Shown here in pieces: positions 46,880 to 46,956 of a stretch of 56,410 nt of DNA. This DNA is from a virus, in IMG/VR virus record IMGVR_UViG_3300022592_000005, positions 1 to 56,410 of that record; one strand, given 5' to 3'. Below the pieces are notes generated by a model. That model was not told the origin of the DNA and searched no databases. It saw only the letters and a program-made list of their open reading frames with translations. The number at the start of each line of letters is the position of its first letter. The stretch's first letter is position 1. A program made the position numbers and the translations under genes.

Positions 46880-46956
46880 TGGTGCGTTAGACAGGAATCG
46901 AACCTGCTACATGCTGTTTTAGAGACAGCCACCCTTACCTTATGGGTTACTAACGC
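46880..46956 (-). tRNA. tRNA with CUA anticodon (amber suppressor)
   Basis: Acceptor GCGTTAG/CTAACGC, D-stem ACCC/GGGT, anticodon stem GCTGT/ACAGC with 7-nt loop CTCTAAA, so anticodon CUA; T-arm GCAGG/CCTGT, discriminator A, encoded CCA. Short variable loop excludes Leu, Ser and Tyr types. It should decode UAG. Confidence 0.88.

What the first reader, a model, noticed from the sequence alone, without database searches (positions are those of the whole stretch)
46880..46956. Amber-decoding tRNA in a phage that rarely uses TAG
A well-formed tRNA has anticodon CUA. Of roughly 100 genes read here, only about five stop at TAG (21776, 29147, 35232, 36580, 50128). At 21776 and 29147 readthrough would reach TAA after 3 and 5 codons, and at 35232 it would fuse in frame with the MazG-like protein. 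This could be a stage-specific suppressor or partial stop-codon reassignment.
Basis: partly seen in the sequence, partly recalled or inferred. Interest (0 to 1): 0.75.

Follow-up and report, generated by a model that had tools for sequence, protein, structure and literature searches.

The report
Phage tRNA-operated stop-codon switch
A phage tRNA that reads the stop codon UAG does not rewrite the phage's genetic code; it belongs to a small cassette, found in many unrelated phages, in which reading through one UAG in a tiny leader peptide probably stalls the ribosome and switches on the next gene.

Summary
TAG stops are equally rare in relatives with the tRNA (25/754) and without it (52/1642; Fisher p=0.90). 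No conserved gene in the window carries an in-frame TAG, and the testable listed TAGs align with ends of homologues, mostly TAA.

The tRNA does have a dedicated target. About 28 nt downstream lies a leader ORF, MKDFA-UAG-IIRPP-UGA, followed by a hairpin that buries the Shine-Dalgarno of a 121-aa gene of unknown family. All tRNA-containing relatives have this cassette; eight near-complete relatives lacking the tRNA do not.

A wider search found 85 loci encoding the protein, including cyanobacterial and Stenotrophomonas phages. A CUA tRNA lies within about 3 kb in 80 of 85. An in-frame UAG followed by Pro-Pro precedes the gene in 81 of 83 assessable loci (56 distinct leaders), usually Arg/Lys/His-Pro-Pro-stop. 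The hairpin covaries.

Best reading: an amber-suppression-gated translational attenuator. It offers a target for the orphan suppressor tRNA of phage Summit. Whether arrest occurs, which way the switch works, and what the protein does remain untested.

The parts
46880..46956 (-). Amber-suppressor tRNA, anticodon CUA
   Evidence: ARAGORN, Rfam tRNA 62.6 bits; cloverleaf kept by compensatory changes among diverged CUA tRNAs; identical copy in L086
46860..46864 (-). Shine-Dalgarno (AAGGA) of the leader ORF
   Evidence: Sequence; purine-rich SD-like sequence before most of the distinct leaders
46816..46851 (-). Leader ORF ATG AAA GAT TTT GCC TAG ATT ATT CGA CCA CCA TGA (MKDFA-UAG-IIRPP-stop)
   Evidence: in-frame UAG then Pro-Pro found upstream of the partner gene in 81 of 83 assessable loci
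46834..46836 (-). In-frame UAG codon, proposed target of the CUA tRNA
46819..46824 (-). Pro-Pro codons of the presumed arrest motif (RPP-stop)
   Evidence: All four Pro codons used among 56 distinct leaders; preceding residue R24 K12 H6 S6 G4 D3 I1
46769..46818 (-). Hairpin whose 5' arm (46818-46803) starts at the leader stop and whose 3' arm (46789-46769) covers the Shine-Dalgarno of the next gene
   Evidence: pair table over 47 leaders with compensatory changes; 41 of 55 against 20.8 expected in shuffles
46773..46780 (-). Shine-Dalgarno region (AAAGGAAA) of the partner gene, buried in the hairpin
46401..46766 (-). Partner gene, 121 aa, all-helical protein of unknown family
   Evidence: Follows the CUA tRNA in all ten clade loci and is absent from eight near-complete genomes without it; AlphaFold pLDDT 92.8; no Pfam, PHROGs or PDB relative

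Best explanation
The CUA tRNA, a leader ORF carrying one UAG, a hairpin that buries a ribosome-binding site, and a 121-aa gene form one regulatory cassette. SHOWN by sequence: the parts, their order, their co-occurrence across phages, conservation of the reading frame past the UAG, and covariation of the hairpin. INFERRED: ribosomes start on the leader; when release factor 1 wins at the UAG they leave 15-27 nt before the end of the Pro-Pro codons, the hairpin stays closed and the gene is silent. When charged suppressor tRNA wins, the ribosome reaches (R/K/H)-Pro-Pro-stop (or an RGPP/RDPP/RSPP motif), stalls on the hairpin's 5' arm, frees the Shine-Dalgarno, and the partner protein is made. The switch therefore reports whether charged phage suppressor tRNA outcompetes RF1. 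The inserted amino acid is unknown; lysine is the best guess from A73 plus U35. The partner's activity and the natural trigger are unknown.
For: (1) Co-occurrence: in the window's clade every locus with a CUA tRNA has the partner gene starting 183-205 nt from the tRNA start, and tblastn finds the partner in no genome lacking the tRNA. Of 85 partner loci, 80 have a CUA tRNA in the fetched stretch; two of the five exceptions are cut off upstream. (2) Leader: UAG then in-frame Pro-Pro in 81 of 83 assessable loci, 56 distinct leaders. The UAG-to-PP gap is always whole codons (2-6), all four Pro codons occur, the residue before PP is R/K/H in 42 of 56, and the codon after PP is TAA/TGA in 43 and TAG in only 1: conservation at amino-acid level beyond a stop codon. 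(3) A genome-wide scan for ATG..UAG..PP-stop 20-110 nt upstream of a gene hits each of the five genomes with the tRNA once and none of eight without it. One hit is in G020, a phage in which tblastn had not found the partner; a short partner-like gene stands there. (4) Hairpin: 47 of 56 leaders pair the Shine-Dalgarno with an arm that starts 0-5 nt after the PP codons in 45 of 47, with U-A/G-C/A-U/C-G exchanges; 41 of 55 vs 20.8 in shuffles, mean z -2.28. (5) The tRNA can be exchanged while CUA is kept: G004 has a leader and partner like L016 (89% partner identity) but a tRNA like G008. In Summit the gene lies upstream of the tRNA, so the tRNA can act in trans. (6) Literature: C-terminal Pro-Pro blocks termination (PMC3834316, PMC2998420); RAPP/RGPP arrest ribosomes and RDPP/RSPP are partly permissive (PMC12992588).
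Against: No experiment shows readthrough, arrest or induction. Most leaders have RPP/KPP/HPP-stop rather than the tested RAPP/RGPP. Six to nine leaders show no helix over the Shine-Dalgarno itself; some fold just upstream of it. Two partner loci (NCTB, L300) lack the standard leader, and no CUA tRNA was found in NCTB, L280 or L300. XacN1 and GAP32 carry CUA tRNAs without this cassette.
Confidence: 0.76

Rival explanations
1. Same cassette, opposite sign: suppression and stalling at Pro-Pro-stop lowers partner expression, for example by mRNA cleavage and tmRNA rescue at the stalled ribosome, so the partner is made only when the UAG is read as a stop.
For: Pro-Pro-stop stalls lead to stop-codon cleavage and tmRNA tagging in E. 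coli (PMC3834316); the window and most clade relatives encode a tmRNA.
Against: The hairpin's 5' arm starts right at the leader stop (0-5 nt after the PP codons), where a stalled ribosome would open it; this is the layout of inducible attenuators. An OFF switch would not need the hairpin.
Confidence: 0.12
2. The tRNA is a broad or stage-specific suppressor, or TAG is partly reassigned, acting on many phage genes.
For: TAG is rare at gene ends, and the tRNA would read any UAG to some extent.
Against: Same TAG frequency with and without the tRNA; no in-frame TAG in conserved genes of the window; distances to the next stop after TAG do not differ between the groups; the listed stops coincide with TAA ends of homologues.
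Confidence: 0.05
3. The tRNA is a passenger of a mobile tRNA-gene-tRNA unit; the UAG simply ends a short leader peptide and the sequence after it is not translated.
For: The cassette sits at different places in tRNA arrays, as mobile units do.
Against: It does not explain codon-level conservation past the UAG, whole-codon gaps, synonymous Pro codons or the near-absence of TAG as the second stop, nor retention of CUA while the tRNA body is exchanged.
Confidence: 0.05

Closest known systems
Leader-peptide translational attenuators and arrest-peptide switches (erm leaders, SecM, TnaC, ApdA/ApdP RAPP peptides)
   Same: Short upstream ORF, arrest-type C-terminus, hairpin over the Shine-Dalgarno of the regulated gene, stalled ribosome placed to open it.
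   Different: Access to the arrest motif is blocked by a stop codon and granted by a suppressor tRNA that the cassette itself carries; no drug, metabolite or secretion state is needed for the gate.
Amino-acid attenuators (trp/his leaders), which read tRNA charging through leader codons
   Same: The leader codon reports the state of one tRNA.
   Different: Here the codon is UAG, the tRNA is phage-encoded, the competitor is RF1, and control appears translational; the trp/his description is from general knowledge.
Phage suppressor tRNAs with no known target (Stenotrophomonas phage Summit PMC9022506; Xanthomonas phage XacN1 PMC5852040)
   Same: Intact CUA tRNA in a standard-code phage; authors looked for target genes and found none. 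Summit carries this cassette, with leader MK-UAG-VYKPP-stop.
   Different: XacN1 and GAP32 have CUA tRNAs but neither leader nor partner was found near them.
Code-15 recoded phages (crAss-like, Lak) with Sup-CTA tRNAs
   Same: A CUA tRNA reads UAG.
   Different: Here no structural or housekeeping gene has internal TAGs and TAG still ends genes.

Membership tests
Stop-codon-recoded phage (code 15) | Conserved genes interrupted by in-frame TAG | tested here: not met
   None in the window; in three relatives with the tRNA only low-identity tail-repeat alignments; none with coding sequence on both sides
Stop-codon-recoded phage (code 15) | Encodes a CUA suppressor tRNA | tested here: met
Stop-codon-recoded phage (code 15) | TAG abandoned as a stop codon because of the suppressor | tested here: not met
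   TAG stops 25/754 with the tRNA, 52/1642 without
Pyrrolysine tRNA (ARAGORN label) | tRNA-Pyl shape: shortened acceptor-to-D linker and small variable loop | tested here: not met
   Two linker bases (8-9), 5-nt variable loop, 9-nt D loop, 7-bp acceptor stem; criteria from general knowledge
Pyrrolysine tRNA (ARAGORN label) | Accompanied by PylRS | not tested
   No PylRS search was run
Translational attenuator | Leader ORF with its own Shine-Dalgarno upstream of the gene | tested here: met
Translational attenuator | Hairpin sequestering the Shine-Dalgarno of the regulated gene | tested here: met
Translational attenuator | Ribosome stalling in the leader induces the gene | not testable with these tools
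   Needs reporter and toeprint assays
RAPP-like arrest peptides | R-(A/G)-P-P or permissive RDPP/RSPP at the C-terminus | tested here: inconclusive
   RGPP/RDPP/RSPP in a minority of leaders; most have RPP/KPP/HPP followed by a stop

The most novel reading that the evidence does not exclude
A widespread class of phage regulators in which a dedicated suppressor tRNA is the signal molecule: phages with large tRNA arrays carry a sentinel CUA tRNA plus UAG-gated arrest leader to sense whether their own tRNAs are made, charged and uncut (or whether host RF1 is limiting), and respond by making a new protein that acts on translation or on host anti-tRNA defence.
Probability: 0.35. Interest if true: 0.95.

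Novelty: new variant of a known kind. Interest (0 to 1): 0.88.

Why it matters
Suppressor tRNAs in standard-code phages have been an unexplained oddity; the two reports read here looked for target genes and found none. This analysis gives a specific, testable target that recurs across unrelated phages. If confirmed it would be a natural gene switch operated by nonsense suppression, with a cassette-encoded tRNA as the control input, and a compact tRNA-responsive part for translational control. It also warns that a CUA tRNA by itself is poor evidence for recoding.

Tried and rejected
TAG rarity as an effect of the tRNA: rejected, equal in relatives with and without it. In-frame TAG recoding: rejected. 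Readthrough products at the listed TAGs: not conserved. Stop-codon context or distance to the next stop after TAG: no difference. tRNA-Pyl: the tRNA shape does not fit. Release-factor gene in the phage: only a 132-aa RF-1-domain ORF in G004, none in the window, G001 or G008. tRNA ancestry: with the anticodon masked, the window's CUA tRNA groups with CAU tRNAs (support 0.89) and family B does not, so several origins are likely, but 76-nt trees are weak. Partner function: no Pfam, PHROGs or PDB sequence relative; Foldseek found nothing significant in PDB; VIA-align's best rows (Z 7.5, seryl-tRNA synthetase helical arm) are within the range expected for helical bundles; BFVD gives only uncharacterised phage proteins. 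Rfam found only tRNAs around the cassette. A pattern scan for TAGATTCGNCCNCCNTAA in viral contigs also returned contigs without tRNA or partner, most likely chance matches. My first CUA-tRNA scanner used a wrong D-arm range and was rerun. A looser leader scan without the stop after Pro-Pro gives background hits, also for TAA and TGA, so the strict form is the informative one.

Full report
OBSERVATION. The tRNA is at 46880-46956 on the minus strand with a perfect cloverleaf, anticodon CUA, A73 and encoded CCA. The window is a 56.4-kb virus record, GC 40.6%, with T4-type baseplate and single-strand-binding proteins. It has about 29 tRNAs: ARAGORN finds 27 plus a tmRNA, and Rfam adds 47125-47206 and 47469-47539.

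TAG USAGE IS NOT THE CLUE. Using relatives found through the DUF7788/DUF2828 protein, I compared genomes with the CUA tRNA (window, G001, G004, G008) and eight without. TAG ends 25 of 754 genes in the first group and 52 of 1642 in the second (Fisher p=0.90). Clade-wide avoidance therefore has another cause. Internal TAGs in conserved genes were sought by tblastn of 2642 proteins against all genomes: none in the window; elsewhere mostly low-identity alignments in tail-fibre-like repeats, with similar TAA/TGA cases. A coding-potential scan gave no TAG with coding sequence on both sides in the four genomes with the tRNA. Homologues of the 21776 and 35232 proteins end at or near the same residue with TAA; the 29147 family mixes TAG, TAA and TGA regardless of the tRNA.

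THE CASSETTE. CUA tRNAs occur in a minority of clade members, in at least two sequence families and at different places in the array. Comparing neighbours showed one shared feature: in all ten loci a 121-131 aa gene starts 183-205 nt from the tRNA's first base, and this gene is found nowhere else in the clade set. Between them lies a leader ORF: window MKDFA-UAG-IIRPP-UGA; G001 MEKFSA-UAG-IRPP-UAA; G004 and L016 MEKLSA-UAG-IRPP-UAA; G008 MKDFRL-UAG-IRPP-UAA; L012 MEKIPRV-UAG-NMHPP-UAA; L033 MMKDLNPISI-UAG-IQKPP-UAA; L074 MKAFFL-UAG-VFRPP-UAA.

BREADTH. A tblastn against annotated phages found the partner in five records: Synechococcus phage BUCT-ZZ01, DSS3_MAL1, NCTB, and Stenotrophomonas phages Summit and DLP_3. 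In DSS3_MAL1 it follows an annotated tRNA-Pyl. In Summit it lies 6 nt upstream of the annotated suppressor tRNA, whose purpose the authors called unknown (PMC9022506). IMG/VR gave 80 more loci. A CUA tRNA was found in the fetched stretch of 80 of these 85. L275 and L276 begin at the gene, so their upstream part is missing; NCTB, L280 and L300 lack a detected CUA tRNA. Of 83 assessable loci, 81 have an in-frame UAG followed by Pro-Pro; L300 has ATG-TCG-UAG followed by a 79-codon extension ending VPP-stop. A metagenome-assembled Robiginitomaculum contig has tRNA, leader (MTWT-UAG-IFKPP) and partner. Six carrier records examined hold 25-36 tRNAs each, which hints at a link with large tRNA arrays; Summit, with 5 tRNAs, is an exception.

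SPECIFICITY. Scanning 13 genomes for ATG..UAG..Pro-Pro-stop ending 20-110 nt before a called gene and outside genes gave exactly one hit in each of the five genomes with a CUA tRNA (window, G001, G004, G008, G020) and none in the eight without (exact probability 1/1287 by hand). G020 came from an unrelated route (an anticodon-arm pattern search); its leader is MT-UAG-KFKPP, followed by a hairpin (ATCTCCATAG/CTATGGAGAT) and a 99-aa gene of partner-like sequence, a similarity judged by eye and by its inclusion in alignment A4.

SIGNS OF TRANSLATION PAST THE UAG. Across 56 distinct leaders, UAG and PP are separated by 2-6 whole codons; P codons are CCA/CCT/CCG/CCC in both positions; the residue before PP is R 24, K 12, H 6, S 6, G 4, D 3, I 1; the next codon is TAA 37, TGA 6, TAG 1, otherwise sense. 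Sense continuations follow RGPP, RDPP, RSPP or IGPP in several leaders. RAPP/RGPP cause strong arrest, RDPP/RSPP are partly permissive (PMC12992588; PMC10951233), and a C-terminal Pro-Pro interferes with termination (PMC3834316; PMC2998420).

HAIRPIN. In 47 of 56 leaders the minimum-energy fold pairs the Shine-Dalgarno with an upstream arm that starts 0-5 nt after the Pro-Pro codons in 45 cases; several flanking positions show U-A, G-C, A-U and C-G pairs in different phages. Against shuffles that keep the last 20 nt, 41 of 55 bury the site versus 20.8 expected, mean energy z -2.28. From the UAG to the end of PP is 15-27 nt, so a ribosome terminating at the UAG should stop short of most of the arm, whereas one at PP-stop would sit on it; this footprint argument is from general knowledge.

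tRNA. Ten CUA tRNAs plus controls keep 94.8% of cloverleaf pairs with changes on both sides in 16 of 21 pairs (one row is a CAU tRNA and one is G020). Among 52 distinct CUA tRNAs next to the partner, 43 have A73 and 51 have G1-C72. U35 and A73 favour lysine (PMC9976931); this is a prediction only. G004 combines a leader and partner close to L016 (89%) with a tRNA of the G008 type, so the tRNA body can be exchanged while UAG decoding is kept.

PARTNER. 121 aa in the window, all-helical by AlphaFold (pLDDT 92.8, pTM 0.79), no named family, no significant PDB fold. Invariant or near-invariant residues include K10, L12, E15, H50, R51, R56, R60, A65, E78. Its activity is unknown.

MECHANISM AND CERTAINTY. 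Shown: the unit, its co-occurrence, frame conservation after the UAG, hairpin covariation. Inferred: suppression, arrest, ON-direction. Unknown: inserted amino acid, trigger, partner function. I searched the held library for a suppressor tRNA regulating a leader peptide and found none; subscription journals are largely missing, so absence is not proof.

NOVELTY. It works like a translational attenuator but differs in the gate: a stop codon opened by a cassette-encoded suppressor tRNA. I therefore call it a new variant of a known kind; the sentinel-tRNA reading would go further but is untested.

Noticed in passing
window 18860-19233 (-): Phage-encoded permuted tmRNA (tag ANDSAYALAA), confirmed by Rfam beta_tmRNA and tmRNA_permuted; also predicted in ten of eleven clade genomes with varied tags. 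It could act on ribosomes stalled at Pro-Pro-stop, but its presence does not depend on the CUA tRNA.
   Followed up: partly
window 47210-47329: Perfect 15-nt inverted repeat (CATTAGTTTTGCTGA / TCAGCAAAACTAATG) 90 nt apart between the tRNA-Tyr and tRNA-Glu genes.
   Followed up: no
window 47125-47206 and 47469-47539 (-): Two tRNAs that ARAGORN missed but Rfam finds; the first looks like tRNA-Tyr.
   Followed up: partly
window 39176-41555 (-): NAD-salvage pair: nicotinamide phosphoribosyltransferase-like gene and a nucleotidyltransferase-NUDIX gene.
   Followed up: no
G004:C1:164364-164648 (L217): 132-aa RF-1-domain ORF in a T4-like relative, possibly ArfB-like ribosome rescue.
   Followed up: no
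L220 (phage NCTB), upstream of 2986: Partner gene with no CUA tRNA found in the 258-kb record. Upstream, ATG-CAA-TAG is followed in the +1 frame by R-G-P-P-V-P-T-stop, as if a frameshift at the UAG replaced suppression.
   Followed up: partly
L279, upstream of 3001: The UAG sits at the end of a much longer upstream ORF, with KVFKPP-stop after it.
   Followed up: partly
L333 36047-36205 (XacN1), L334 3001-3073 (GAP32): CUA tRNAs without the leader or partner: a second, still unexplained class.
   Followed up: partly
window 29147-29515 (-): Small zinc-finger-like protein family that ends in TAG in several relatives, with and without the CUA tRNA; L014 and G004 have similar Cys-rich readings after the TAG.
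   Followed up: no
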